DNA from: a virus
Virus record (IMG/VR): IMGVR_UViG_3300035156_000361
Location: 1 to 44,532 of that record
Length of the DNA: 44,532 nucleotides
Direction: 5' to 3' (one strand)
The notes beneath the pieces are model-generated. The model saw nothing but the letters and a program-made list of their open reading frames with translations, was not told the origin of the DNA and did no database searches. This document shows, piece after piece, positions 1 through 44,532 of this stretch (position 1 is the stretch's first letter; each line of letters begins with the position of its first letter). The position numbers were made by a program, and so were the translations under genes.

Positions 1-1677
1 ATGACCGAATACAGCATCGTCCGTGAACCTGGGCTCGATGAGACCCCGTACCTGGTCGCCGACTACCGCTACCTCACAGTCGGCAAGCCTACCCACGGCT
101 CATACCGCTATGCGACCTTCGACGACGCGGCGAGCTACGCCGCCGAGCTGAACGGAGAATACCGCGGCTACTACCACCGGGTCATCCCCTTCGGCACACC
201 GATGGACGCCCCAGCCGGCTGGCAGGATCGCGAGCTCCGCCGGTTTGCTCTCGGCGAATACGCCGCGACGCCTTGGGACCTGGAGCCTTGGTATGCCACC
301 AAGCGCAACGAGCACTTCTGCCACATGTCGGCGAAGCAGCCGGGCATGGTCGCCTACACCGAGAACGAGGCTAAGGGCGCGGCCGACCGCCAGACCCAGA
401 CCCGTGCCGGGCGCTACCTCACCAAGTTCTTCTCGGACGTGCTCACGGCCAACGAGATCGAGGCCTGGGCGGCGAAGGTGTCCGTCGAGGCGGGCGAGCG
501 CCAGCTCCACATCACGCAGGATGCCGACGAAATCGAGGCCGTGTACGTCAGCGGGCCGAACTCCTGCATGTCCTACGAGGCCCGCCACTTCTCCGGCCAC
601 TGCCACCCGGTTCGGGTCTATGCCGGTCCTGACCTGGCTCTGGCCTACACCGGCGCCATCGACGACGCGAAGGGCCGCGCCCTAGTGTGGCCTGCGAAGA
701 AGCAGTACGGCCGCATCTACGGCGACGAGAGCCGCATGAAGCTACTGCTGGCAGCCGAGGGCTATGAGCCCGGCAACTTCACCGGCGCGCAGCTCCGCCG
801 CATCCAGGACAGCAACGGGCAGGGGCTCATCATGCCTTATGTCGACCGGGTGCCCGTCTATGACGACGGCGAGACGCTGGTGATCGGCGACAGCTCGCAT
901 GGTTACCCGATCGAGACCGACAACCAGCGCGGCCTCGCTGACAACGCCCGCGACGACCGGCCTAGCTGCGACCACTGCGGCGACCCTTACGAGGAGGACG
1001 ACGGCGAGTATCTGGATCACCGGGACGAATACTGGTGCTCCCACTGCGCCGACAACTACGCCAGCCGGTGCGAGTACGACAACAACCTCTATGCCATCAA
1101 CTCCGTGTCGCTGGTCGAGGTGCATTCAAGCAACACCTACAGCCGCTTCACCTCAACCTCCTACGTGCATCCCGGCAACCTGGATGACTATGGCGCGGTG
1201 CTGACCCGGAGCGGGGACTACTGGCACCAGGACCACACCTACTTCTGCGACGAGTTGCAGGAGGATTGCTCGGTCCACGACGACGGCGAGCCCATCGACT
1301 GGGACGGGGATACCCTGTGCCTAGAGGGCGCTGAGAAGCGCATGGCCGAGCAGGACGCCGACGAGGTGCCGATTGCGCACATCGAAGCATACCGGGCGCT
1401 GCCGCGGCCTGCTCCGGCTCAGCCGGTGGTCACTCCGGTGGTGGTCGACTTCGCCGCCCGCAATGAGCCGGTGCCTACCCTTTGGGAGGTGATGCTCACC
1501 CGTGAGGACGGCGACACCGCGCTCTGTACCATGTGGAACACGAGGGGCCGGGTAAGCCCACGCGATGAGGCGGAACGGACGAGGCGGGAGCTGTCCCTCA
1601 TGTACCCTCGATGCACCTACACCGTGCAGCCCGCCGGCACCTTCGCAGCAAGCCAGCAACTCGCCCTCGCGGCATAA
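1..1677 (+). CDS. Large Cys-motif protein of unknown function
   Basis: Protein of 558 residues that I cannot assign to a named family. Two CxxC pairs, C323/C326 and C346/C349, lie in an acidic stretch and could form a zinc ribbon or treble-clef finger. The central part (about 175-300) has a mixed alpha/beta look with several short conserved-looking blocks, and the C-terminal third is Pro/Ala rich and probably flexible. It opens the early accessory block and is followed 15 bases later by the peptidase gene with an AAGGGA ribosome site. The start at base 1 has no upstream sequence in the window, but joining the window ends puts GGAG (44523-44526) six bases before this ATG, which supports the start. 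Similar large unknown proteins occur in podophage early regions; a regulatory or DNA-binding role is only a guess. Confidence 0.8.
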   Translation: MTEYSIVREPGLDETPYLVADYRYLTVGKPTHGSYRYATFDDAASYAAELNGEYRGYYHRVIPFGTPMDAPAGWQDRELRRFALGEYAATPWDLEPWYATKRNEHFCHMSAKQPGMVAYTENEAKGAADRQTQTRAGRYLTKFFSDVLTANEIEAWAAKVSVEAGERQLHITQDADEIEAVYVSGPNSCMSYEARHFSGHCHPVRVYAGPDLALAYTGAIDDAKGRALVWPAKKQYGRIYGDESRMKLLLAAEGYEPGNFTGAQLRRIQDSNGQGLIMPYVDRVPVYDDGETLVIGDSSHGYPIETDNQRGLADNARDDRPSCDHCGDPYEEDDGEYLDHRDEYWCSHCADNYASRCEYDNNLYAINSVSLVEVHSSNTYSRFTSTSYVHPGNLDDYGAVLTRSGDYWHQDHTYFCDELQEDCSVHDDGEPIDWDGDTLCLEGAEKRMAEQDADEVPIAHIEAYRALPRPAPAQPVVTPVVVDFAARNEPVPTLWEVMLTREDGDTALCTMWNTRGRVSPRDEAERTRRELSLMYPRCTYTVQPAGTFAASQQLALAA

Positions 1678-1692
1678 CCAAGGGACATCGCC

Positions 1693-2700
1693 ATGACCTA
1701 TTACCCTGCGGGCCGTGAAGGCCTGCTGGAAGTGCTGTCCTGGGCGCGTCCCCACGATAGCGAGACCGAGCGTCGCTTCTGCCGGGAGTACCTCGACAAG
1801 GTGCCCGGCATGACGGCGGACGCCTTCGGGAACCGGATGCTCCGTATCGGCGATGCCCCGGTGATGTGGTCCTGCCACGTCGACACCGTGGCGTCCAAGT
1901 GTGGGCCGCAGCTCCTGGACTTCGATCCGGTAACGGAAATCGTCGGCCTAGCTGGCGGCAAGGCGGGGCAAAGCCTGGGCGCCGACGACGGCACCGGCGT
2001 GTGGATCATGCTCAACATGATCGCCGCCCGCCGCCCCGGCCTCTACCTGTTCCACCGCGGCGAGGAGCGGGGCTGCCTCGGCTCCTCGTGGCTCAAGGAG
2101 AACACCCCGGAGGTGCTCGAAGGCCTCCAGGCAGCCGTCGCCTTTGACCGGGCCGGCTACTCGGATGTCATCACGCACCAGTCCTATGGCCGCACCTGCT
2201 CCGACGCCTTCGCCAAGTCCGTGGCGGCGCAGCTCAACGCCTGCTGGCCGGACTTCGACTACCAGCCGGACGACGGCGGCATCTACACGGACACGAACGA
2301 GTATGCCGGGATGATCCCGGAATGCTCCAACCTGTCGGTGGGCTACTACGGCCAGCACGGCCCGCGCGAGACGCAGGATGTCGCCCATGCCGAGCGCCTG
2401 CTGGCAGCCATGCTCGTGTTCGACTTCGACCAATGCGTGATCGACCGTGACCCCGCCGTCATCGACGCCGATGATCGCTGGGGCTGGATGAAGGACGACT
2501 GGCGCGCGCCTAAACGCAAGCCGTCGAAGGACGACATGAACGCCTATACCGAGGCCGTGGAGGAGAGCCCGCACGTTGCGGCCCTGCTCCTCGCCGAGCT
2601 GGGCATCAGCCTCGACGACTTCCTCGACGAGGCCTGGGCCAGCGACCGCTTCGGCGATGATCGCTGGCAGGACGACTACCGCCCGATGGCCACGGCTTAG
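1693..2700 (+). CDS. M20/M28-like zinc metallopeptidase
   Basis: Protein of 335 residues with the signature of co-catalytic di-zinc exopeptidases. H62 and D64 lie in the HVDTV box (first metal ligand), D98-D99 in GADDGTG (bridging Asp), and E124-E125 in [11 protein letters not shown] (catalytic Glu plus metal ligand). A downstream [14 protein letters not shown] block probably gives the last His. The order and spacing fit M20/M28/M42 families, with M28-like GEE and M20-like HxDT features. No signal peptide is visible, so it should act in the cytoplasm. The C-terminal 80 residues are acidic and Trp-rich and have no obvious peptidase role. The substrate is unknown; peptide recycling or cleavage of a host peptide or amide metabolite are possible. 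Family-level assignment is firm, exact family is not. Confidence 0.85.
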
Positions 2701-2767
2701 GCCGGGCCTCTCCCACTCAACGACCTGTGACCCCGGACGCGATGCGAGCCGGGGCGAGGAGACGCAT

Positions 2768-3427
2768 GTGAAAATCTCAAAGACCGAGTTGGCCGCTATG
2801 ATCGCGGCTCACGCACTCTGGATCGCCTGCGATCCGAGTGGCTCCAGGGCGGACCTCTCCGGGGCGAACCTCTCCAGGGCGGACCTCTCCGGGGCGAACC
2901 TCTCCGGGGCGGACCTCTACGGGGCGAACCTCTCCGGGGCGAACCTCTCCGGGGCGAACCTCTCCGGGGCGGACCTCTACGGGGCGAACCTCTCCGGGGC
3001 GGACCTCTACGGGGCGAACCTCTCCGGGGCGAACCTCTCCGGGGCGAACCTCTCCGGGGCGAACCTCTCCGGGGCGAACCTCTCCGGGGCGGACCTCTCC
3101 GGGGCGGACCTCTCCGGGGCGCGCAACCTCTGGTTCCAGGTCCCGCAGGAGGGCGAGCTGATCGTCTGGAAGAAGCTCAAGGGAGGCGTCATCGCCAAGC
3201 TCCGGGTTCCGCCAGAGGCCCGTCGAACCGCTACCCCAGTCGGTCGCAAGTGCCGCGCAGAGTTCGTCGAGGTGATCGAAGGCGAAGGCGTGTCCATGCA
3301 CGACGGCGTGACCATCTACTCGGCGGGTCAAACAGTCCGTCCAGACCGCTTCGACGACGACGTTCGAGCGGAGTGCCGCCCTGGCATCCACTTCTTCCTG
3401 ACCCGTGAAGAAGCGGAGGCATACTGA
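2768..3427 (+). CDS. Pentapeptide-repeat protein with DUF5758-like C-terminus
   Basis: Protein of 219 residues. I chose the GTG at 2768 because GAGGA lies seven bases upstream; the open frame runs further up only without a ribosome site. Residues about 27-120 are some 18 consecutive A(D/N)LSG-type pentapeptides, predicted to form a right-handed quadrilateral beta-helix. The remaining roughly 95 residues end in [13 protein letters not shown], which resembles the DUF5758-type tail found on other phage pentapeptide proteins. Some members of this fold (Qnr, MfpA) mimic DNA and bind gyrase; whether this one does is inference. At DNA level the repeats are almost identical 15-mers, a sign of recent expansion. 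It overlaps the next ORF by one base (TGATG). Confidence 0.88.
2849..3123 (+). repeat. Tandem 15-bp repeat array inside the pentapeptide gene
   Basis: About 18 head-to-tail copies of a 15-base unit of the form GGGGCGAACCTCTCC, with GAACC/GGACC and CTC-TCC/CTC-TAC variants. It encodes the pentapeptide repeats. Near-identity including third codon positions points to slippage or recombination rather than old divergence, so copy number may vary between isolates and assembly of this stretch may be unreliable. Confidence 0.9.
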
Positions 3428-15965: not shown

Positions 15966-18500
15966 TTGCACGATCTGGTCGACGCTGCCGTGTCGGCCGG
16001 GGCAACCCACGAGGTTCCCCGGCTGACGCAGGTTCAGCTTGAGGAAGAAATGTACGCCTTCGGCCGCGCGCGAACGCAGCGCATGATGTCCCGCAACGAG
16101 GAAGGCGGCCGAGCCAACAATAACCCCTATGCCCAGGCGATCTACCGGCGCTTCGTGCTGCCGCTCGCCGCGATCATCAAGGAGGACACAGACACCAAGA
16201 AGCCCGGCCGTCGCAAGGCGCACACCGCGCTGCTCCTGCCGATGGACCCCGAGGCCGTCGCCTACCTCGCCGTCAGAAACGTGCTCAACACCCTGATGAA
16301 CGGCACCGACACCGCTTCTGGCGGCGCGAGCACGGGTCAGCACCCCAGCGACCACGGAAGCGCCGTCGGCGCGTCGGCGCGGGGCGTCGTGAACGCAGTG
16401 GGCAAGGCGGTCTACCACGAGCTGCTGCTCGGCCTGTTCGAGACGGCGGCGCCGGACCTGTTCTTTACCCTGGTCAACGACCTTGGCCGCCGCATGTCAA
16501 AGTCCGAGCGGCACCGCATGACGGTGTTTAAGCTCCAGGCCAAGGATAACGGCATCCCGTTCCCGGAATGGGGGACGGCTGGCGTACAGCAGGTCGGCGC
16601 CTACCTCGTGGACCAGCTTGAGCAGCTCGGCCTGGTTGAGACTTCGACGCTCACCATCGGCGCGTCGCGAGCCAGCGCCTTGCGGACTCGCATCGACGTG
16701 CGGCTGACGGGAGACGTGCTGGAGCTGATCGGACAGATCAAGGGGCACATCGTCGAGACGACGCCCTACTATCTACCGTGCATCGAGCCCCCGTGCGACT
16801 GGACGAGCATCCGGGATGGTGGCTTTCATACAAACGCCATGCGCCGGATGCAGCCCTTTGCAGTGCGCTCCCATGGCGGTTGGAGTGAGTTCGACGACTA
16901 TGACATCGGCACGATCCTTGCCGCCATCAACTCGCTCCAGCGGGTGTCTTGGCGCATCAACGGCGCCGTGCTCGACGTGGTTCGCCAAGCGGCTCGGCAC
17001 TTCGATATGGAGGAAATCCTCAGCCAGGCGGAGTTCCCGGCGCCCCCCAGACCCGTTTTCCTCACCGACCGTCCGGACCTAAAACAGGAACAGATGACGC
17101 CAGACGAGCTGGCCGCGTTCATCGACTGGAAGCGAGCCAAGTCGCAATGGTTCACGGAAATGAAGCTACGGGGCACCAAGTACGGTCGCTTCTACACGGC
17201 CACCACCGTAGCAGATAAGTTCCGAGGCTTCTCGGCAATCCATTTCGTCTACTTCGCCGACTTCCGGGGGAGGCTCTACGCGCAGACCACCGGCGTCAGC
17301 CCGCAGGGCTCCGACATGCAGAAGGCACTGTTACACTTCGCCGACGGCAAGCCGCTTGACACGGTGGAGGCCGAGCACTGGTTTATGATCCACGGTGCCA
17401 ACAAGTGGGGCCAGGACAAGCTCCCGTTACAAGATCGGATAGCGTACATCCGCAAGTATGACCGGCAAATCCTAGAGTTTGCGGCCGACCCTATTGGCTG
17501 CAATGACTGGCGCGGCGCAGACAAGCCTCTACAGTTCCTTGCGTGGTGCCTCGAATACGCAGAGTGGCGCCGCTCTCCACATACCTTCGTGAGCCGACTT
17601 CCGATTGGAATGGACGGCTCTTGCAACGGCCTCCAGAACTTCTCCGCGATGCTGCGCGACGAGGTGGGCGGAAAGGCGACCAACCTGGTCCCGGCTGCGA
17701 TACCCCACGACATCTACCAGATGGTCGCCGACGTGACCGCGCTGGGCCTGCGCCGAGCCGAACCTGACGAGCACGGCTACCGGGACCGTTGGCTGGCGCA
17801 CGGCATCGGCCGCTCCCTGGTAAAACGGTCGGTGATGACGCTTCCTTACGGCTCGACCCGGTTCTCCTGTGCAGACTTCATCGTCGACGACTACCTCAAG
17901 CAGGGCAAGGCAACCCAGTTCGCCCGAGAGGAGTATCGGCCGGCAGCGCAATACCTGTCCCACTTCGTTTGGGATGCCATAGCCGAGGTGGTGGTCAAGG
18001 CCCGTGAGGCGATGACTTGGCTACAGGCAGGTGCCCGGCAGATCATCAGGGCAGGGCAGGGGAGTGTGCGTTGGGTCACTCCAGCCGGCTTTCCTGTAAC
18101 CCAGTATTACCAGGAGCAGGACAACCACCGCATCCGCACGAGCCTGTGTGGCAACGCCTTCCTCCGGCTGTCGGTCGACAACGACACCCCCGACGGACAC
18201 CGGCACCGTAACGGCATCGCACCGAACTTCGTCCACAGCTACGACGCGGCTCACCTCCACCTCGTCACGGTGGTGGCGACGGCCGAGGGGCTGAACCTCG
18301 CGATGATACACGACGACTACGGCACCCACGCAGCCGATGCTGCGCGACTCTACCGGATTATACGCGAGGTGTTCGTGGCCATGTACGAGAGCTGTGACCC
18401 GCTCGCCCAGTTCGCCGAGACCTATGATCTGCCGGCGCCACCCGCGCGCGGCGCCCTCGATCTGCGGCAGGTGCTGGACTCACCCTACTTCTTCTCGTGA
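15966..18500 (+). CDS. Single-subunit DNA-directed RNA polymerase (T7 type)
   Basis: Protein of 844 residues. The TTG at 15966 is taken as start because the following block VQLEEEMYAFGRAR is typical of this family's N-terminus; no strong ribosome site is visible. All catalytic motifs are present: D550 in MDGSCNGLQNFSAML (motif A, T7 D537), R616, K620 and Y628 in RSLVKRSVMTLPYGS (motif B, T7 R627/K631/Y639), and D783 in MIHDDYGTHA (motif C, T7 D812). It lies directly upstream of the virion genes, the phiKMV-type position, and is followed within one base by a phage promoter motif. It should transcribe the structural and lysis genes from that motif. Confidence 0.96.
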   Translation: MHDLVDAAVSAGATHEVPRLTQVQLEEEMYAFGRARTQRMMSRNEEGGRANNNPYAQAIYRRFVLPLAAIIKEDTDTKKPGRRKAHTALLLPMDPEAVAYLAVRNVLNTLMNGTDTASGGASTGQHPSDHGSAVGASARGVVNAVGKAVYHELLLGLFETAAPDLFFTLVNDLGRRMSKSERHRMTVFKLQAKDNGIPFPEWGTAGVQQVGAYLVDQLEQLGLVETSTLTIGASRASALRTRIDVRLTGDVLELIGQIKGHIVETTPYYLPCIEPPCDWTSIRDGGFHTNAMRRMQPFAVRSHGGWSEFDDYDIGTILAAINSLQRVSWRINGAVLDVVRQAARHFDMEEILSQAEFPAPPRPVFLTDRPDLKQEQMTPDELAAFIDWKRAKSQWFTEMKLRGTKYGRFYTATTVADKFRGFSAIHFVYFADFRGRLYAQTTGVSPQGSDMQKALLHFADGKPLDTVEAEHWFMIHGANKWGQDKLPLQDRIAYIRKYDRQILEFAADPIGCNDWRGADKPLQFLAWCLEYAEWRRSPHTFVSRLPIGMDGSCNGLQNFSAMLRDEVGGKATNLVPAAIPHDIYQMVADVTALGLRRAEPDEHGYRDRWLAHGIGRSLVKRSVMTLPYGSTRFSCADFIVDDYLKQGKATQFAREEYRPAAQYLSHFVWDAIAEVVVKAREAMTWLQAGARQIIRAGQGSVRWVTPAGFPVTQYYQEQDNHRIRTSLCGNAFLRLSVDNDTPDGHRHRNGIAPNFVHSYDAAHLHLVTVVATAEGLNLAMIHDDYGTHAADAARLYRIIREVFVAMYESCDPLAQFAETYDLPAPPARGALDLRQVLDSPYFFS

Positions 18501-18521
18501 TTTGATACCGTCCTGCACAAG
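18501..18521 (+). promoter_or_regulatory. Phage RNA polymerase promoter, copy 1 (structural block)
   Basis: TTTGATACCGTCCTGCACA followed by AG, immediately after the RNA polymerase stop codon. The same 19-base core recurs at 33594 (identical) and 41237 (one change, G to C). It precedes the small ORF at 18534 and the virion genes. Assignment as a promoter for the phage polymerase is inference from recurrence, orientation and position. Confidence 0.8.
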
Positions 18522-29440: not shown

Positions 29441-32400
29441 ATGCCAGAAAGCCGCAGGGGCCAGTCCCGTCCCGGCCACAGCTTCCGCGATCCCGTTTAC
29501 GACGAGGTGGAGGCCAAATATGAGAAAATGTACGGCCTGCCTGCGGGCGGTATGAAGGCCATCCGCACCCGCGGCGAGCGGTCGAATGCCGACCAGGTTT
29601 CGCCGGTCGGCGCCCGCACCGTGTACCAGATCATGCCCAAGACGCGCGGCGCCTTCCAGAAGCGGTACAAGGTCGACGCCTACGCGGACATCGACTCCGC
29701 CGCCCATGTCGCCGCGCTGCACCTCCGTGACGACTTGAAGCGCACCGGCTCCTGGGAAGGGGCCGTGCGCGGCTACATCGGCGGTCCCGACCCCCGCCAA
29801 CACGGCAAGGTCACTCGGGCCTACGTCAGCCGCGTTACCGGCAACCGCGTCACGGCGCGCGCTGACGTTCCCGCCAGCCCCGGTGTTCACACCGACGGGA
29901 AGGCGCTCCAAGCGGGCGAGGTCAACTGGCTCGGCACCAGCACGGGCGACTACGCTTGGGCAGAGCGCCCCCTTGGCCCCGAGGCACCAAACCCCAAGGA
30001 CACGCCTTCGGGCAAGCGCCTCTCCGGGCTGCTGGCGGTGGTCGGCGCAGGGGGCATTCCCGGCAAAGTGGACACGCCGAACACACCCGTCATCGCGACG
30101 GAGCTTGCCGAGCAGCAGCAAGGTGAAGCTACTGAGGCTCGCCGGATTGAACTCGGCAAGGCGGGTTTCTTCGGCCGAGCCCAAGCCGCTACTGACGAGA
30201 ACTGGTTACTCGCTGAGGTTGGCCGGTCGATGGATCGCGCCCAACCCGAAGCGGAGGAGGGTTATACCCCTTGGTACATGGCTAACCGCGAGGACATCGA
30301 AGCCTTCGCCCAGACGCCACATGAGCGCACCCAGCTCCGCCAGACCACCAGCAAGGCGGGGCTCGCCCAGGTCAAGCTGGACATCGGTCGGGAGCGGCAG
30401 AACTGGGAAATCGCGGACGCCACCGGCCACGGCACGGCGTTCTCGCTGATTGCCGGCCTCGCCGATCCCGCAGGTTGGGTCGCTGGCTACGGCGTCGGCA
30501 AGGCCTTTCAGGTGGCCGGCATCGGCTCCCGCGTTCTGGCGCAGTCCGGCCGCGTCGCCGGGGCAGTCGCCTCCGCAGGCGCCGAGGGCATGATCGGCAA
30601 TGTGGGCTTCACCGCCCTGCTCGATGCCGCTGGGCGCACCACCACGTCCGAGGATTACGCCATGAGCGCGGGCCTCGGCCTGGGGATCGGGCTCGGCCTG
30701 TCTCCCCTGACGCTACGCGGCCGCGCTGAGCCACAGCTCCCGGCTTCGGCCGAGCGCGTGGTCCAGGCAGCTCAGGAGGCCCAGGGCGCCCGTCTCGCGC
30801 AAGCGTCGCGCGTCCTGGGGGAGGGCGCCACCCCCGAGCAGATCGCGACCGAGGCCAAGCGCCTCGACGCCCGCGACCAGCGGAACTTCGTCCTGTCCGC
30901 GCTAGGGGACATCCCTGACACCGAGCGGCTGCTGCACTCCGATCCGGAGAAGCTGCTCACCCGCGATCCTGCGGTCAAGCAGGGGGTCACCGACCGCTAC
31001 AACCTGTCGGCCGCGGTGGCTGACGACGCGGAGCGGGACCTGCTAGCGGAGCACCTTGCTCGCGCCGAGGCGATCGTTGCTGCCAACCCGGTCGACGAGA
31101 AGGCCCTCAACACGATCCTGCGCGCGGGTGGCTGGGAAAGCACGGGCTTGCGCCTGCTGCGCTCCGAGAGCCCGGTGGCAAAGGCGGTGGGCACCGTGCT
31201 GCTGGAAAGCACCACCGGCGCGGCCGGACGCCGCCCGACGGCGGCCCTGGCTATGGCCACGCGGCAGCGCATGTACCTGCGGACCTTCTACGGGTTCGAC
31301 GGGCTCTACCACCAGTTCCGACGCTCCGAGGGAGCCGGCCTGGTCTCCGAGGCCGTAACCGGCAAGGTCCGGCGCCGCTTCGACGAGCGCGTGTTCGATG
31401 AGGTCGAGGCCCGGTCGGGCAGCCCCGAGGGGCAATACTTCGACGCTAACCCGTTCGTGCGCGAGGCCGCTGACCTTTGGGAACGCGGCATGAACCAGAT
31501 GCGTACCGAAATGCAGCACGTCGACACCGTGGGGGCGGCCCGGCTCGGCAACACCAGCCGCGGCTACATGACCCACAAGCTCGATGCTCGGAAGGTGGTC
31601 GCCCTGACCGGCGCCCAGCGCACACAGGTGCGCGACATCCTCTCCGCCCAGTTCATCGACCCCGACAACGGGTTCAGCCCGGAGTTCTCCAAGAAGCTCG
31701 CCACCAAGTATCTGGAGCGGGCGGAGGACGCGGCCAAGGGCGGATACGACGTGCCGATGAACCTCCGCAGCCCAGAAGCGGCGCAGATCGTGCGCGACGC
31801 CCTGGAGGCCATGAGCATCCCCTCCGAGGAGCTGGACAAGCTCATGGGCAAGTTCTCGCGCGGCGGGGCGAACTTCACCAAGCAGCGCCTGCGCCTCAAC
31901 CTCCAGGCGGACATCGGGGACGGCATGGTCCTGCGGGACCTGTTCACTACTGACCTCGCCTCCATGTACCGCAGCTACGCTCGGCGCGTGGCCGGGGAGG
32001 TGGCGCTGGCTCAGTACGGCGTCATGGGCAAGAAGGGTCTCAACGAGCTGCGCAAGGCGATCAGCGCCAGCGGCGGCTCCGTCGATGACATGAAGGCTTA
32101 CGACCAGATCGCGGCCGAGTTCCTGAATACGCCCTTCGGCGAGCACAATCACCGCTTCATGGACAACCTCCGGGTCGCCACGGGCGCGGCGCGGCTCGGC
32201 GGCATGGGGTTCACCCAGTTTGCCGAGTACGGCAACGGCCTTGCGGCGCTGGGCGTCCAGCGGGTGTTCGCCGCCATCGGCGCGCTGCCCCGGCTGGTCC
32301 GGGAGGTGGGCCACCTCAAGGCAGGTGGCACCTCCAAGAACCCGATCCTGGGCAGCCTCGACCTGCTCGGCGGCGACATTGGCATGGACGAGTACCAGCT

Positions 32401-33361
32401 CACCAGGTTCTTCGACGTGAAGGACTCGGACATCCAGGTCTACAGCTCCGAGAACATCGGGCTCGGCAGCCGCGCGCTGCGCGGGGCGGCTCACGCCCAG
32501 GCGGTCCTCACCGGGCAGCGCCTCATTACCGCCGTGCAGACGCGCGGCATGGCCGAGCAGATCGCCCGCAAGGCGATGAAGTTCATCCGATCCGGCAACG
32601 AGGATGAGGCCTTGGCCGACATGGGCTTCACGCCAGAGCTGGCCGAGGCGATCCGCGGCGACCTCCCGAACGTCGCCCGTTTCGACGGGGACAGGCTAGT
32701 GGAGCTGGGTCTCACCAAGTCCAAGCTGCCTGGCTACCAGCTCGCGCAGCTACGGGACGCGGTGGAGCGCGGTGCGAGCCAGATCATCCAGCGTACCTAC
32801 GTCGGCGAGACCGGCAAGTGGGCGCACGACGGCTTCCTCAAGATGCTCGCCCAGTTCCGCACCTTCGGTGTCACCGCCGTCGAGAAGCAGTGGGGCAGGG
32901 GCGTCCGCAACCACGGCGCGATTAAGTCCGCGATGTACCTGCTTGGCTCCATGAGCTTTGCGGTGCCCGTCCACATCGCGCGGGTGCAGGCCAAGATGAC
33001 GGGCATGTCCCGCTCCGAGCGGGAGAAGTACGCAGATCAGAACCTGTCCGTGGGAGCGCTCGGTCGCGCCAGCCTTAACTACGCCTCGGCCTCTGGCCTC
33101 CTCGGCGACATCATCGACGTGGGCGGGGGCTTCGCCTCCAGCTTTGGCGGCGACGGCGGCGAGGAGCTGGCCAAGCAGATCGGCGTCCGCGGCACCAAGG
33201 GGCAGTCGCAGCTCATCGGCGGCGTCATCGCCCCCGGTGTCGGGCTAGTAGAGGATGTCTGGGACGGTGTGCATGGCGACGGCAAGAAGCTGGTCAAGAT
33301 AATGCCGGGGGCGAACCTGCCCTATGCCCAGCCGATCATCAACGCCGTGTCGGCAGATTAG
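29441..33361 (+). CDS. Internal virion protein with lytic transglycosylase domain, gp16-like
   Basis: Protein of 1306 residues (T7 gp16: 1318). Residues about 15-130 are a transglycosylase SLT domain: E46 in RTRGERSNAD is the likely catalytic Glu, followed by SPVGARTVYQIMPKT and a GAVRGYIGG loop. The rest is helical with hydrophobic stretches, as expected for a protein that crosses the inner membrane during ejection. Residues about 209-233 (KVDTPNTPVIATELAEQ) recur in a leftward small gene at 33358-33552. The stop overlaps that gene's stop on the other strand. Confidence 0.92.
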   Translation: MPESRRGQSRPGHSFRDPVYDEVEAKYEKMYGLPAGGMKAIRTRGERSNADQVSPVGARTVYQIMPKTRGAFQKRYKVDAYADIDSAAHVAALHLRDDLKRTGSWEGAVRGYIGGPDPRQHGKVTRAYVSRVTGNRVTARADVPASPGVHTDGKALQAGEVNWLGTSTGDYAWAERPLGPEAPNPKDTPSGKRLSGLLAVVGAGGIPGKVDTPNTPVIATELAEQQQGEATEARRIELGKAGFFGRAQAATDENWLLAEVGRSMDRAQPEAEEGYTPWYMANREDIEAFAQTPHERTQLRQTTSKAGLAQVKLDIGRERQNWEIADATGHGTAFSLIAGLADPAGWVAGYGVGKAFQVAGIGSRVLAQSGRVAGAVASAGAEGMIGNVGFTALLDAAGRTTTSEDYAMSAGLGLGIGLGLSPLTLRGRAEPQLPASAERVVQAAQEAQGARLAQASRVLGEGATPEQIATEAKRLDARDQRNFVLSALGDIPDTERLLHSDPEKLLTRDPAVKQGVTDRYNLSAAVADDAERDLLAEHLARAEAIVAANPVDEKALNTILRAGGWESTGLRLLRSESPVAKAVGTVLLESTTGAAGRRPTAALAMATRQRMYLRTFYGFDGLYHQFRRSEGAGLVSEAVTGKVRRRFDERVFDEVEARSGSPEGQYFDANPFVREAADLWERGMNQMRTEMQHVDTVGAARLGNTSRGYMTHKLDARKVVALTGAQRTQVRDILSAQFIDPDNGFSPEFSKKLATKYLERAEDAAKGGYDVPMNLRSPEAAQIVRDALEAMSIPSEELDKLMGKFSRGGANFTKQRLRLNLQADIGDGMVLRDLFTTDLASMYRSYARRVAGEVALAQYGVMGKKGLNELRKAISASGGSVDDMKAYDQIAAEFLNTPFGEHNHRFMDNLRVATGAARLGGMGFTQFAEYGNGLAALGVQRVFAAIGALPRLVREVGHLKAGGTSKNPILGSLDLLGGDIGMDEYQLTRFFDVKDSDIQVYSSENIGLGSRALRGAAHAQAVLTGQRLITAVQTRGMAEQIARKAMKFIRSGNEDEALADMGFTPELAEAIRGDLPNVARFDGDRLVELGLTKSKLPGYQLAQLRDAVERGASQIIQRTYVGETGKWAHDGFLKMLAQFRTFGVTAVEKQWGRGVRNHGAIKSAMYLLGSMSFAVPVHIARVQAKMTGMSRSEREKYADQNLSVGALGRASLNYASASGLLGDIIDVGGGFASSFGGDGGEELAKQIGVRGTKGQSQLIGGVIAPGVGLVEDVWDGVHGDGKKLVKIMPGANLPYAQPIINAVSAD

Positions 33362-33552
33362 CGCCAAAGAGAGCGCCACCAAGTCCTCCAGGGGTGCTTG
33401 GTGGCCTCCGCCCTTCTACGGGCCTCAGCAGCCTCTCCCAAGCGCTGCTCCCTAAGCTCTGCGGTTATGATCGGAGTGTTCGGCGTATCCAGTTTGGGCG
33501 GGATGACCACCGGCGGTGCAGCGGTTTGGAGGAGCAGGGCAGCGATCAGCAT
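33358..33552 (-). CDS. Leftward small membrane-anchored protein sharing an ejection-protein segment
   Basis: Protein of 64 residues read leftward, the only convincing minus-strand gene. It begins MLIAALLLQTAAPPVVIPP, a hydrophobic signal or anchor without a lipobox, then KLDTPNTPIITAELREQRLG and a Trp/Arg-rich basic end (HPWRTWWRSLW). Across 25 codons it aligns without gaps to residues 209-233 of the gp16-like protein, with 17 identical residues but only 53 of 75 bases equal; at least seven differences are synonymous, which argues that it is or was translated. Its stop overlaps the gp16-like stop tail to tail. I see no strong ribosome site or leftward promoter. Function unknown; a role in the lysogen, such as superinfection exclusion, is a hypothesis. 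Confidence 0.6.
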   Translation of the reverse strand: MLIAALLLQTAAPPVVIPPKLDTPNTPIITAELREQRLGEAAEARRRAEATKHPWRTWWRSLWR

Positions 33553-33593
33553 ACGCTGAGTCTGCCGAGCGCCCTCCGCCGGGTCAATTCCCT

Positions 33594-33614
33594 TTTGATA
33601 CCGTCCTGCACAAG
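33594..33614 (+). promoter_or_regulatory. Phage RNA polymerase promoter, copy 2 (tail/lysis block)
   Basis: TTTGATACCGTCCTGCACA, identical over 19 bases to the copy at 18501, then AG. It lies 45 bases before the tailspike start, in a gap between the leftward small gene and the tailspike. Followed by a GC-alternating stretch and AT-rich CATTTATAGG, which contains the tailspike ribosome site. Confidence 0.8.
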
Positions 33615-33659: not shown

Positions 33660-36122
33660 GTGCCGACGCCTGACCCGAACTACAAGTTCAGCATCAACCA
33701 ATACACCGGCGACGGCAGCCAGACGATCTGGCCGATCAGCTTCCAAGGCGGCTTCATCAGCCGCAGTCACGTCAAGGCCAGCCTGGTCGCCGGCGACGGC
33801 GCTGCCTCCACGCTTACTTTCACCTGGATCAATGACCAGAGCGTCCAGATCACGCCGGCCGTCGCCGCCGGTCAGACGTTCCGCGTCTACCGGGACACCC
33901 CCAAGGACGCAGCTCTGGTCGAGTTCGCCGACGGCGCTTTCCTCTCTGAGCAGAACCTGGACAAGAACGCCCGTCAGGCCGTGCTCCTCGCTGGTGAGGC
34001 CGCTGACGCTCTGACCGACGCTTCGATCAATGGCGGTGCCGTGGGACTTGCCGACGCGCCAAACGACGGCACCCCCTACCTCCGCCAAGGTGGGGACTGG
34101 GTAGAGGCGACGCTCACCGAAGGCGGGCTCCCCGAGGCTCCTGCGGACGGCAAGCAGTACGTTCGCAAGAACCAGACCTGGGCCGAGGTGATCGCCGCCG
34201 CAGCCATCGCTGCGGCCGGCACGATCATGCCGCTTGGAACAATGGCGGCAGCCATGGCCACGCCGCCCGCCATTCCGGCGAACGTCCGCATGGTGCAGAC
34301 CTCCGGCTATGCAGTGCAGGGCGTTGGCCCGGCGCTCTATGTGGAAGCGCCTGCGGTCAACTCAGCCTACGTCGCCGCAAACCCGCGCAGTTGCTTCCTC
34401 GCCGCAGACGGCCGCGGCTTTCGCATCATTGAGCCGGTTCTTCGCCCGTCGATGTTCGGCACGGCGAACGATGGGGTTACCAACGAAACCCTAGCGTTCG
34501 TTGCGATGTCGCGAGAAGTTCGCCGCCGAAATGGCGGCGTCATTCTTCTCGACCGGACCGTTTACATGGTTGGCCTTCAAGACGCAGCAAACACGAATAC
34601 GGGCAACGCTTTTGGGGTGGGCGTCGGCCCGTCGCCGCTCGACTTCAGCAATATGAGCGGGCGCGTTCAGATCATCGGGAACGGTGCAATCTTTCGCACT
34701 GTGTCGGGGCTCAAATACGGTTCGTTCAATCCGGCCACGGGTGCTGCGCGAACCACGATCAGCACAACGCCAACCGACGCTGCATCCCCCTTCGAGGGCG
34801 TGGTTCGCTGGGTGGATTGCTCCGGCGACCTCACGCTTGAAGGCTTTCGGTGCGAAGGGCAAAACCATACCTTCGTTCTGGGCGGTGAGTATGGCGACAC
34901 CGGCCGACAAGTTTCCAACTATGGCCTCTACATCGTGCGCGCGACCGGCCGGATCAGCGGTGTGGATTTCGACGCGGTACGCATGGGCCTTGATGGCGGC
35001 GCGGCGCAGCTCACCACGACAGCGACGAGCCCCAAGCGCCCGCTGACCATGACGCGATGCTTTTTCGACGAAAACGGTCGGCAGGGCTTCTCTCAAGTCG
35101 GTGGTCGCGGCGCGCGCTATGTTGATTGCCGCTTCAACCGCACGGGGCGCGGGGGCGTCTCAAGCGCGCCATGTTCCGGCTTCGACATGGAGGCGGAGGG
35201 TGCGAACCTCAATCGCGATACCGTCTTCGACGGGTGCGAGTTCGTCGACAATGTTGGTACTGCCATGGTCGCCGATAGCGGCGACAGCGCGGACGCAACC
35301 TTCCGGCGATGCAAGTTCATCGGCACGACCAATTGGGCGGTGTGGGCCAACAAGCCCGGAATGGTCTTTGAGGACTGCAAGATCATCGGCGCGGTGGTCA
35401 ATCCCTACCCCGACGCGAGCGGCAAGCTGTCCAACCGCTTTATCCGGTGCCTCTTCACCGACGACCCCGCACTATCCCCGACTGGCCTGGTGTACGGTCC
35501 CCGCGTCGTAGAGACGGTGCCCGCCACCGGTACGCTGTTCGACGACTGCGACTTTACACTCGTTGGCGCAATGACGCTTCCGTACACCCCGAACGGGGTC
35601 CGTTATCGCGACTGTCGCCTGTCGCAGGCCACTGCGACTGCAACAATCATGACCGGCACCTTTACCGGCCTGAATGTCATCAGTGCGCCGGCGAACGCGG
35701 TCAACCTGGCAAACTCGAACTATGTGTCGGGGATCGTCAACCTCAACGGCGCGGTGGTCAGTTCGGCCGGCGGAGAGCCGTGGGACTTCTACACGCCGGC
35801 CATCACAGTCGGGTCCGGTGCGCTGACCACGTTCTCAACGTACGGTAAGTGGAAGCAGGTGGGCAAGACCGTCCACTTCATGTTGACGATCCGCATAAAT
35901 GACAACGGTACTGGCGCAGATACGCTGACAGCGACGCTCCCGGTGGCGGCGTCCAATTACAATTCGTTCGCCGGGCGCGAGGTAATCTCCGCTGGGTTCG
36001 GGCTCTCGTGCCATAACCCGGTCGCAAGCAGCAACATCGCCATCGCCAAGTACGATGGCACCTATCCGGGCGGAACCACCAATTATCGGCTGGTCGTCAG
36101 CGGGTCCTACGAAGCGGCCTGA
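33660..36122 (+). CDS. Tailspike/tail fibre with T7 tail-fibre N-terminus and beta-helix
   Basis: Protein of 820 residues; GTG start with AGGAGA eleven bases upstream. Residues 1-120 match the T7 gp17-type virion-attachment domain (YKFSINQYTGDGSQTIWPIS, then FLSEQNLDKNARQAVLLAGE). From about 250 to 650 the repeats of short strands with Gly/Asn turns (GRVQIIGNGAIFRTV, RFNRTGRGGVSSAP, FDGCEFVDNVGTAMVAD) suggest a right-handed parallel beta-helix, as in polysaccharide-degrading tailspikes. The C-terminus is beta-rich and probably trimerises. Base use in the beta-helix part is less GC-rich than the flanks, suggesting exchange. Catalytic residues cannot be identified. Confidence 0.88.
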   Translation: MPTPDPNYKFSINQYTGDGSQTIWPISFQGGFISRSHVKASLVAGDGAASTLTFTWINDQSVQITPAVAAGQTFRVYRDTPKDAALVEFADGAFLSEQNLDKNARQAVLLAGEAADALTDASINGGAVGLADAPNDGTPYLRQGGDWVEATLTEGGLPEAPADGKQYVRKNQTWAEVIAAAAIAAAGTIMPLGTMAAAMATPPAIPANVRMVQTSGYAVQGVGPALYVEAPAVNSAYVAANPRSCFLAADGRGFRIIEPVLRPSMFGTANDGVTNETLAFVAMSREVRRRNGGVILLDRTVYMVGLQDAANTNTGNAFGVGVGPSPLDFSNMSGRVQIIGNGAIFRTVSGLKYGSFNPATGAARTTISTTPTDAASPFEGVVRWVDCSGDLTLEGFRCEGQNHTFVLGGEYGDTGRQVSNYGLYIVRATGRISGVDFDAVRMGLDGGAAQLTTTATSPKRPLTMTRCFFDENGRQGFSQVGGRGARYVDCRFNRTGRGGVSSAPCSGFDMEAEGANLNRDTVFDGCEFVDNVGTAMVADSGDSADATFRRCKFIGTTNWAVWANKPGMVFEDCKIIGAVVNPYPDASGKLSNRFIRCLFTDDPALSPTGLVYGPRVVETVPATGTLFDDCDFTLVGAMTLPYTPNGVRYRDCRLSQATATATIMTGTFTGLNVISAPANAVNLANSNYVSGIVNLNGAVVSSAGGEPWDFYTPAITVGSGALTTFSTYGKWKQVGKTVHFMLTIRINDNGTGADTLTATLPVAASNYNSFAGREVISAGFGLSCHNPVASSNIAIAKYDGTYPGGTTNYRLVVSGSYEAA

Positions 36123-41011: not shown

Positions 41012-41236
41012 ACGGCCTGATTTTGATGTGCTGGTGAGAGGGGGCAACTCCGACTGTCAAAGACCGTAATCACCCCCGTGGGGGCCTGGGCGCGTCCGCG
41101 TTTGCGCGTGGATTAACTCCGGGCAGGCGCGTGGGCGCTCCCGGTTTCCGCTCAGGGTTAGGCCAATGGCTTAGCCGGAGTGGGGCAGGGTAGGCGCGGG
41201 GCCGATCTGTCTCGTTTGCCTGATGCTTAGCGGGGT

Positions 41237-41257
41237 TTTGATACCCTCCTGCACAGG
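41237..41257 (+). promoter_or_regulatory. Phage RNA polymerase promoter, copy 3 (non-coding region)
   Basis: TTTGATACCCTCCTGCACA followed by GG; differs from the other two copies by one base in the core. It reads rightward into non-coding sequence about 0.9 kb upstream of the first early gene at 42174. This placement suggests either a non-coding transcript, a primer for replication, or middle-time transcription of the early block. Confidence 0.75.
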
Positions 41258-43105: not shown

Positions 43106-43456
43106 ATGATTAGTGCCGCGTCTGTCGAGTCGCTTGCGCCGCAGGTCAGCCCTCGGGCGATGACCGTCGCCCAGGTGGCTGCCCTCTGGGGGGTCTCCGA
43201 CACCTTCATCTATGACCTGTGCAATGGGGGGCACCTCCCCGGCGCATTCAAGCTGGGGCGCAAGCTCTGGCGCATCCCGCCTTGGGCTGTGGAGGAGTAC
43301 GAATGTCGAGCCAACAGTGGCGCCTTGGAAAGCTCACCCGAGGGCGAACCGATGGTTCCGCCTATTGGAGCTGGTGCATCATCTGGAACAAATCAGACGG
43401 CGGGCGAGGACGTGTCTCGCTTGGCACGACTGACAAGGCAGCCGCGCAGACGCTAG
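43106..43456 (+). CDS. Excisionase-like HTH protein
   Basis: Up to 116 residues from ATG 43106; ATG 43160 is an alternative. Residues about 19-68 form a MerR/HTH_17-type winged helix: MTVAQVAALWGVSDTFIYDL, then GHLPGAFKLGRKLWRIP and AVEEYE, the pattern of excisionases and other small DNA-bending proteins. The C-terminal 50 residues overlap the integrase gene by 154 bases in another frame and look low in complexity, so they may matter little. It should direct the integrase to excision or regulate the lysogeny genes. The overlap suggests tight coupling with the integrase. Confidence 0.8.
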   Translation: MISAASVESLAPQVSPRAMTVAQVAALWGVSDTFIYDLCNGGHLPGAFKLGRKLWRIPPWAVEEYECRANSGALESSPEGEPMVPPIGAGASSGTNQTAGEDVSRLARLTRQPRRR

Positions 43457-44346
43457 CTCGGGAGTTCTGGTCGAAGCTCACGCTGTCCTCGGTCGAGACT
43501 GTGGGGCAGGTGATCGACGCCTATCTGGCGACGCTTCCCGATCCGAGGGCGAAGCCGGACATGAACACGGCGTCGGCTATCAAGGGCAGCTTTCGCAAGC
43601 ATACCTCGTGGAAGGCAGCCAAGCCCTTCTGGGGCAACCTCACGATGGATCAGATCGACGAGCAAACCAGCGGCGATTACGTCGACTGGCGCAAACGCGC
43701 CTCGAACACGCTCCGCAACGAGCTGGGGCTGATCCGCACGGCGCTCAACTGGGCGGCCAAGCGCAAGCTGATCCCGTCTGCGCCTCGCATCGTCCTGCCC
43801 GCCATGCCCGAGAGCACGGTCGAGCACCTGTCGAAGCCGCAGTTCCGCAAGTTCCTCGCAGGTTGCCGTGCGCCGCATGTCGTCCTGTTCGCTCAGCTCG
43901 CCGTCCTTACGGGTGGCCGGGCCAAGGCTCTGTTGGAGCTGACCTGGGACCGTGTTGACCTTGAGCGGGGGCTACTCACGCTCAACCCACCGGGCCGGGT
44001 GCAGAAGGCGAACAAGACGCGCGCCACCGTGCCACTCAACGACCGCGCTATGAGCTTGCTCGGCGAGGCGAGGGCAGGGGCCACGTCTGACTTCGTGATC
44101 GAGCATAACGGCGGGCCTATCGGCGACATCAAGAAGGGCATCCTGGCTGCGAGCCAGCGATCCGGCGTTCACGCCAGCCCGCATGTCTTCCGGCACTCGG
44201 CGGCCGTATGGATGGCCGAGGATCGGACGCCGATGGACGAGATTGCTCGCTTCCTCGGGCACACGGACACCCGCATCACGAGCCGGGTCTACGCCAAGTT
44301 CAGCCCGGACTACCTGCGCCGGGCCGCGAAGTCCCTGGACTGGTAG
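43303..44346 (+). CDS. int: Tyrosine integrase
   Basis: Protein of 347 residues from ATG 43303, which has GGAGGAG six bases upstream. A short basic N-terminal arm-binding-type segment is followed by a core-binding domain (about 60-170, SAM-like, with QVIDAYLATLPDP and WAAKRKLIP). The catalytic domain has R206 (TGGRAKALLEL), H294 and R297 (HVFRH), H320 (FLGHTD) and Y330 (SRVYAKF), the full R-H-x-x-R-H-Y set. It should insert the phage at an attB site; the candidate attP lies about 1.5 kb upstream. Integrases are uncommon in this phage group and imply a temperate life style. Confidence 0.95.
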   Translation: MSSQQWRLGKLTRGRTDGSAYWSWCIIWNKSDGGRGRVSLGTTDKAAAQTLAREFWSKLTLSSVETVGQVIDAYLATLPDPRAKPDMNTASAIKGSFRKHTSWKAAKPFWGNLTMDQIDEQTSGDYVDWRKRASNTLRNELGLIRTALNWAAKRKLIPSAPRIVLPAMPESTVEHLSKPQFRKFLAGCRAPHVVLFAQLAVLTGGRAKALLELTWDRVDLERGLLTLNPPGRVQKANKTRATVPLNDRAMSLLGEARAGATSDFVIEHNGGPIGDIKKGILAASQRSGVHASPHVFRHSAAVWMAEDRTPMDEIARFLGHTDTRITSRVYAKFSPDYLRRAAKSLDW

Positions 44347-44352
44347 GAGAGC

Positions 44353-44532
44353 ATGATGAAGCACGACGTAGCCTGGGCCGTCGCCCAGCTTCGGCAGCAG
44401 GCCGCAGCTTTCCGCGACGAGGCCGAAAGGCAGGGAAAGAAGCCCGGCAAGCTCGCCGCGGCATACGAGGAAGCAGCCGCTTACCTCGACGCTATCACCG
44501 ATCCCCGGTTCAACCGAACCTGGGAGCAATAG
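44353..44532 (+). CDS. Small helical hypothetical protein (59 aa)
   Basis: ATG 44353 or 44356 follows AGGAGA directly after the integrase stop; 44356 has the better spacing. The product is a charged Ala-rich helix pair (LRQQAAAFRDEAERQGKKPG, then AAAYEEAAAYLDAI). Its TAG ends exactly at the window end, and GGAG six bases from the joined ends would serve gene 1. Confidence 0.65.
   Translation: MMKHDVAWAVAQLRQQAAAFRDEAERQGKKPGKLAAAYEEAAAYLDAITDPRFNRTWEQ

What the first reader, a model, noticed from the sequence alone, without database searches (positions are those of the whole stretch)
33358..33552. Leftward small gene carries a copy of an ejection-protein segment
The only good minus-strand gene encodes a 64-residue protein with a hydrophobic N-terminus and a 25-residue stretch aligning without gaps to residues 209-233 of the phage's own gp16-like ejection protein (17 of 25 identical; 53 of 75 bases). 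At least seven differences are synonymous, so both copies seem to be selected as protein. A membrane-anchored mimic of an ejectosome segment, encoded against late transcription in a phage with an integrase, could be a prophage-expressed superinfection exclusion factor that blocks genome ejection of related phages. The function is hypothesis; the duplication is visible.
Basis: partly seen in the sequence, partly recalled or inferred. Interest (0 to 1): 0.85.

Follow-up and report, generated by a model that had tools for sequence, protein, structure and literature searches.

The report
Exported copy of phage injection-protein segment
An integrase-carrying T7-like phage has a small backwards gene, apparently driven by a bacterial promoter, for a protein with an export-signal-like start fused to a copy of part of its own DNA-injection protein; four relatives carry different backwards genes of this kind at the same spot, so it looks like a slot for prophage genes that might keep rival phages out, a role nobody has tested.

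Summary
The leftward 64-aa ORF (33358-33552) contains a 30-residue, 90-nt inverted copy of gp16 residues 206-235 (21/30 identical, shuffle p about 1e-10); it is by far the longest inverted repeat in the window. New evidence: 57 relatives' loci without the gene have only 13-99 nt between gp16 and the tail-fibre gene. Five phages, including the window, have 298-472 nt there, and all five hold a leftward ORF with a hydrophobic, signal-like N-terminus, different mature parts, and a TTGAC box 9-14 nt beyond the inverted phage promoter (2 of 57 controls have TTGAC anywhere in the gap). The integrase is present in all three gene-bearing contigs long enough to show it and in 0 of 28 near-complete contigs without the gene. 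So this is a moron slot of an integrase-bearing T7-like lineage, probably of sphingomonads. The copied segment falls by position in the region that in T7 is gp16's 'molecular tape', which binds gp15 in the periplasmic tunnel. Best reading: a lysogen-expressed exported protein, in this phage possibly jamming gp15-gp16 assembly of incoming relatives. Exclusion is inferred, the other slot proteins do not mimic gp16, and no expression data exist.

The parts
33358..33552 (-). leftward ORF, 64 aa, ATG start, TAA stop overlapping the gp16 stop codon
33505..33552 (-). hydrophobic N-terminus MLIAALLLQTAAPPVV, signal-peptide-like
   Evidence: hydropathy: 9-mer mean 2.41; only 2.3% of 87 leftward ATG ORFs of the window reach 2.3
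33415..33504 (-). 30-codon copy of the gp16 linker segment (ORF residues 17-46)
   Evidence: (inverted repeat arm 33419-33508)
30056..30145 (+). source segment in gp16, residues 206-235; by position in the region of the T7 gp16 'molecular tape'
   Evidence: T7 alignment (low local confidence); PMC8954989
33582..33587 (-). -35-like box TTGACC of a leftward host-type promoter
   Evidence: TTGAC at the same place in all five phages with the leftward gene; anywhere in the gap in 2 of 57 controls
33559..33564 (-). -10-like hexamer CAGACT, 17 nt from the -35 box and 6 nt from the ATG (leaderless geometry; weak match to TATAAT)
   Evidence: same geometry in L053 and L003; no site at the strict cut-off of the consensus scan
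33593..33612 (+). phage-RNA-polymerase-type promoter of the tail-fibre gene (TTTTGATACCGTCCTGCACA)
   Evidence: three copies in the window, 0.01 expected; similar motif before the tail fibre in relatives
33375..33405 (.). 9-bp inverted repeat GCCACCAAG/CTTGGTGGC, 13-nt loop, just after gp16; possible terminator, lies inside the 3' end of the leftward ORF
   Evidence: sequence; relatives have a hairpin directly after gp16
29441..33361 (+). gp16-like ejection protein with transglycosylase domain
   Evidence: PHROG 342 E 1e-207, PF01464
27072..29432 (+). internal virion protein in the gp15 position, suspected target of the mimic
   Evidence: PHROG 3883; target role inferred
33660..36122 (+). tail-fibre gene, right neighbour of the slot
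   Evidence: PHROG tail-fibre matches
43303..44346 (+). tyrosine integrase
   Evidence: PF00589 E 5e-18; 73% and 54% identical in L053's and L030's contigs

Best explanation
The ORF is a moron (a cargo gene with its own host-type promoter, inserted between two late genes) of a temperate T7-like phage. Shown by sequence: it sits in a slot between gp16 and the tail-fibre gene that in five related phages, integrase-bearing where this can be checked, holds different leftward genes whose products start with a signal-like N-terminus, each behind a TTGAC promoter box beside the phage late promoter. Inferred: host RNA polymerase transcribes it leftward in the lysogen, and activity of the adjacent phage promoter shuts it off in lytic growth; the product is exported to the periplasm or its membrane face. 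In this phage the mature part was made from an inverted copy of the gp16 segment that follows the transglycosylase domain. Because that region in T7 is the 'molecular tape' that cements gp15 into the periplasmic tunnel, the exported copy most likely binds gp15 of a superinfecting relative and blocks tunnel assembly, giving superinfection exclusion. Rough confidences: real leftward moron gene 0.85; exported 0.75; exclusion function of any kind 0.45; exclusion by occupying the gp16-tape site on gp15 0.3.
For: Gap of 298 nt here and 300, 427, 472, 304 in L053, L051, L030, L003, against 13-99 nt elsewhere. All five large gaps carry leftward ORFs with hydrophobic N-termini. TTGAC at corresponding positions in all five, anywhere in 2 of 57 control gaps. 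Integrase in the window and the L053 and L030 contigs, none in 36 contigs without the gene, 28 of which are 39 kb or longer; the L051 and L003 contigs end before the place of the integrase. The five are not one clade on the gp16 tree: the label needs 3 changes, at least 2 forced, so gene and integrase seem to come or go together more than once. The window begins at an ATG and ends at a TAG, as trimmed proviruses do, and L053's contig begins at the integrase stop codon. The copy is strongly non-random and graded with phylogeny (own gp16 p 1e-10, L053 gp16 3e-6, L030 gp16 8e-4), which points to gp16 as the source. Tape role of T7 gp16 157-228: PMC8954989. Precedents: SieA lies between genes 16 and 9 of P22-like prophages and acts on ejection proteins (PMC10883804); Ltp is an exported prophage protein whose repeat domains act on the tape measure protein (PMC3952083).
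Against: The other four slot proteins do not significantly resemble their own gp16, so mimicry is not the rule of the slot. The KxDTPNTP motif is in no other gp16 relative examined and no homologue of the small protein was found, although the contig searches used exact 8-mers and are not sensitive. Codon usage is atypical, as expected for cargo but also for a non-gene. The low pN with saturated pS could come from gp16 of other phages before a recent capture. Alignment of this region to T7 gp16 is of low confidence. The -10 match is weak. Pasto and HTVC019P have an integrase but no gene in this gap. No expression, localisation or phenotype data.
Confidence: 0.4

Rival explanations
1. The slot encodes exported lysogenic-conversion proteins with envelope functions unrelated to ejection, for instance masking the receptor used by the adjacent tail fibre or changing the host envelope; the gp16 segment was only raw material for a new gene.
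For: The other slot proteins have unrelated mature parts. L030's protein has a homologue on a Sphingopyxis plasmid (31%, E 2e-6; shared C-terminal GFPxRKF), so that one is a general accessory protein. The slot also abuts the tail-fibre gene.
Against: Does not explain why a segment of the ejection protein, rather than any other sequence, is retained in frame behind a signal-like N-terminus.
Confidence: 0.3
2. The gp16-like stretch is a recent, possibly neutral capture of DNA from a diverged relative's gp16, inserted in reverse into the slot, and the ORF has no selected function.
For: Unique to this phage; atypical codon usage; ORF length not unusual for the gap; the divergence pattern is explained by selection on gp16 alone if the capture was recent.
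Against: Promoter box, hydrophobic N-terminus and leftward orientation are shared with four relatives; the captured stretch is in frame with no stop.
Confidence: 0.17
3. The inverted repeat works as RNA: rightward late transcripts that run through the gap fold back onto the gp16 coding region and tune gp16 or tail-fibre expression.
For: Predicted duplex of -110 kcal/mol against -57 for shuffled arms.
Against: Differences concentrate at third codon positions (9/4/16), as protein constraint predicts and pairing constraint does not; relatives with the same slot have no such repeat.
Confidence: 0.06
4. The product belongs to host lysis (spanin-like) or virion assembly.
For: Small exported protein next to late genes.
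Against: No lipobox cysteine in the window protein, transcription opposite to the late genes, absent from the relatives without integrase examined, no PHROG or Pfam lysis match.
Confidence: 0.03

Closest known systems
SieA superinfection exclusion protein of P22-like prophages
   Same: Extra gene between the last ejection-protein gene (16) and the tailspike or tail-fibre gene; present only in part of the group; several dissimilar types; envelope protein; known target is the ejection conduit (PMC10883804).
   Different: SieA is a polytopic inner-membrane protein with no reported copy of an ejection protein; here the proteins are small, with one signal-like N-terminus (L003 has two hydrophobic stretches), in T7-like rather than P22-like phages; exclusion is unproven.
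Ltp-type exclusion lipoproteins (Streptococcus phage TP-J34)
   Same: Prophage-expressed exported protein; repeat domains reported to act on the DNA-delivery (tape measure) protein of incoming phages (PMC3952083).
   Different: Ltp is a lipoprotein of Gram-positive hosts encoded in the lysogeny module; the window protein has no cysteine and carries a copy of the delivery protein itself.
gp16-N 'molecular tape' of T7
   Same: The copied segment lies by position in this region, between the transglycosylase domain and the rest of gp16.
   Different: Detached, fused to an export-type N-terminus and encoded leftward.
Temperate T7-like phages Pasto, HTVC019P, LUZ100
   Same: T7-like genome with a tyrosine integrase.
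   Different: Their integrase lies beside the RNA polymerase gene; Pasto and HTVC019P have 43 and 48 nt between gp16 and tail fibre and no leftward gene there.

Membership tests
Moron (prophage cargo gene) | Extra gene between two genes that are adjacent in relatives | tested here: met
   298 nt against 13-99 nt in 57 control loci
Moron (prophage cargo gene) | Own promoter, independent of phage late transcription | tested here: inconclusive
   Leftward TTGAC box conserved in five phages, weak -10, no strict consensus hit
Moron (prophage cargo gene) | Composition different from the resident genes | tested here: met
   Codon score -0.15 against +0.09 to +0.46; GC3 0.72 against 0.86
Moron (prophage cargo gene) | Expressed from the prophage | not testable with these tools
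   No transcriptome held
SieA family | Sequence homology to SieA types A, B or C | not tested
   SieA was not compared directly; no Pfam or PHROG family matched the window protein
SieA family | Polytopic inner-membrane protein | tested here: not met
   One hydrophobic N-terminal stretch only
SieA family | Gene between ejection gene 16 and tailspike or tail-fibre gene | tested here: met
SieA family | Blocks DNA ejection of related phages | not testable with these tools
   Needs an infection assay
Ltp-type lipoprotein | Lipobox cysteine after the signal sequence | tested here: not met
   No cysteine in the 64 residues
gp16 tape segment | Significant similarity to gp16 between the transglycosylase domain and the next conserved domain | tested here: met
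   p about 1e-10 with own gp16, 3e-6 with L053 gp16
gp16 tape segment | Binds gp15 | not testable with these tools
   Inferred from T7 (PMC8954989); local alignment to T7 of low confidence

The most novel reading that the evidence does not exclude
A prophage exports a copy of its own ejection-protein tape to the periplasm, where it binds gp15 and jams the DNA tunnel of incoming relatives: superinfection exclusion by self-mimicry of the injection machine, in a cargo slot that integrase-bearing T7-like phages lose when they lose the integrase.
Probability: 0.27. Interest if true: 0.88.

Novelty: new variant of a known kind. Interest (0 to 1): 0.62.

Why it matters
If true, it would be, to my knowledge, the first exclusion protein made from a segment of the phage's own ejectosome; it would make gp15-gp16 tape binding testable with a 30-residue peptide, and it would show that integrase-bearing T7-like phages carry a leftward cargo slot at the same place where P22-like prophages keep sieA. 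Even without the mimic mechanism, the slot is a findable source of small exported phage proteins of unknown function.

Tried and rejected
Homologues of the 64-aa protein in IMG/VR, GTDB contigs, phages and plasmids: none. Two viral contigs with a DTPNTP pattern are chance matches. Prophages in GTDB could not be reached: gp16 8-mers gave nothing, and the genome search does not draw relatives for a virus record or accept a plasmid locus as centre. A wider integrase search brought no further T7-like phage with a slot. The idea that every slot protein mimics its own gp16 was tested and rejected (L053 p 0.03 is not significant after multiple tests; no DNA similarity except in the window). L224 as a relative of L030's protein looks spurious: its context is an unrelated genome. 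AlphaFold of the small protein alone (mean pLDDT 67, one main helix at 31-50) and of gp16 140-420 (mean pLDDT 68; helix at 218-239 covering the second half of the copied stretch) agree on an extended stretch plus helix, but confidence is too low to build on.

Full report
What was checked. The leftward ORF at 33358-33552 is exactly as described: MLIAALLLQTAAPPVVIPPKLDTPNTPIITAELREQRLGEAAEARRRAEATKHPWRTWWRSLWR. Its residues 17-46 align without gaps to residues 206-235 of the gp16-like ejection protein (21 of 30 identical), and the DNA forms the longest inverted repeat of the window, 90 nt at 70%, the next being 39 nt. Against composition-preserving shuffles the match to gp16 has p about 1.6e-10; the match to gp16 of the nearest relative, L053, has p about 3e-6 and to L030's 8e-4, while other window proteins score at background, the best being p 0.009. 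The gradation along the phylogeny indicates that gp16 is the source and the small ORF the copy. Differences fall 9/4/16 on the three codon positions; pN 0.18, pS 0.75. That means protein-level constraint along the path between the copies, but not necessarily in this ORF, because the copy could have been captured recently from another phage's gp16.

The slot. The window is a T7-like phage with an integrase. Its first base is the A of an ATG and its last three bases are TAG, which suggests a provirus trimmed at gene borders. In the loci of gp16 relatives collected from IMG/VR and GenBank, the distance from the gp16 stop to the tail-fibre start is 13-99 nt, in the ones inspected filled by a hairpin and mostly a phage-type promoter. 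Five phages depart: the window (298 nt), L053 (300), L051 (427), L030 (472) and L003 (304). Each has a leftward ORF in the gap: P0003 88 aa MIPALVFLMFSAAPADR..., P0004 107 aa MIAALLMMLPIPAD..., P0005 124 aa MIAAIALAAAALATPIAS..., P0006 96 aa MRIIRISLILAGFAWAAYWAL.... All five start with a hydrophobic stretch reached by 2.3% of leftward ATG ORFs in the window; the mature parts are not significantly alike.

Promoter. On the minus strand all five show TTGAC 9-14 nt beyond the inverted phage promoter motif (CGGTA). Of 57 control gaps two contain TTGAC on that strand, neither at this place. In the window, L053 and L003 the geometry TTGAC(C/G), 17 nt, hexamer, 6-7 nt, ATG fits a leaderless transcript; L051 and L030 have a longer leader with a purine-rich stretch before the ATG. 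The host-type box and the phage promoter are 5 nt apart, so host and phage polymerase could hardly use the place together; this suggests on in the lysogen, off in lytic growth (inference).

Link with the integrase. PF00589 is found in the contigs of L053 and L030 and in the window, and in none of 36 contigs without the gene, 28 of them 39 kb or longer. L051 and L003 end before the position of the integrase. The raw association is 3 of 3 against 0 of 28 (p about 2e-4 by counting, not corrected for kinship). On a gp16 tree the five are not one clade: three changes are needed, at least two forced, which fits an ancestral slot lost more than once together with the integrase, or repeated gain. Pasto and HTVC019P, temperate T7-like phages with the integrase beside the RNA polymerase, have no such gene, so the slot belongs to this lineage and not to all temperate T7-like phages.

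What the copied piece is. In T7, gp16 residues 1-156 hold the transglycosylase and 157-228 form an extended 'molecular tape' that cements gp15 in the periplasmic hexamer (PMC8954989). Here the transglycosylase domain is at 25-118 and the copied stretch, 206-235, lies between it and the next conserved domain; profile alignments place it at about T7 195-230, with low local confidence. A copy of this piece exported to the periplasm would be placed where gp15 of an incoming phage must assemble. This is the proposed mechanism; it is inference.

Comparison. SieA of P22-like prophages occupies the same position (between genes 16 and 9), exists in dissimilar types and acts on the ejection conduit (PMC10883804). 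Ltp of Streptococcus phages is an exported prophage protein whose repeat domains act on the tape measure protein (PMC3952083). The present gene works perhaps like these but is not a member of either: no polytopic membrane protein, no lipobox, no family match. No paper found in the held library describes this slot or an exported copy of an ejection protein, but the library is incomplete and the searches few.

Limits. The mimic is seen in one phage only. Other slot proteins do not mimic gp16; one, L030's, has a homologue on a Sphingopyxis plasmid, which argues that the slot carries mixed cargo and suggests a sphingomonad host. Expression, export and phenotype are untested.

Noticed in passing
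window 33593-33612, 18500-18519, 41236-41255 (+): Three copies of TTTTGATACC[GC]TCCTGCACA (0.01 expected): probable promoters of the phage's own RNA polymerase, before head genes, the tail fibre and in the right-end region.
   Followed up: partly
L030:5758-6132 (-), P0005: Slot protein of L030 is homologous to WP_212599184.1 on Sphingopyxis granuli plasmid pRW412b (31%, E 2e-6), with shared cysteines and C-terminal GFPxRKF: an accessory protein with an export-like N-terminus carried by both a phage and a plasmid.
   Followed up: partly
L051:9210-9260 and L030:6100-6150: The start codon of the leftward gene lies in an inverted repeat GGCGGCAA(T/C)CA...TGATTGCCGCC with a purine-rich stretch in the loop; perhaps the old terminator hairpin before the phage promoter was reused.
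   Followed up: no
window 33558-33562 (-): The -10-like region of the leftward promoter contains GACTC, a GANTC site of the alphaproteobacterial methylase CcrM.
   Followed up: no
window 2782-3186: About 19 or more head-to-tail copies of a 15-nt unit (5-residue repeats) in the ORF 2576-3427.
   Followed up: no
window 1-3 and 44530-44532; G001 contig start: The window starts with an ATG and ends with TAG, and L053's contig starts at the integrase stop codon: both look like proviruses cut out of host contigs at gene borders, which would be direct support for lysogeny in this lineage.
   Followed up: partly
window 43303-44346: Integrase lies after the lysis genes at the end of the record, not beside the RNA polymerase gene as in Pasto and HTVC019P.
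   Followed up: partly
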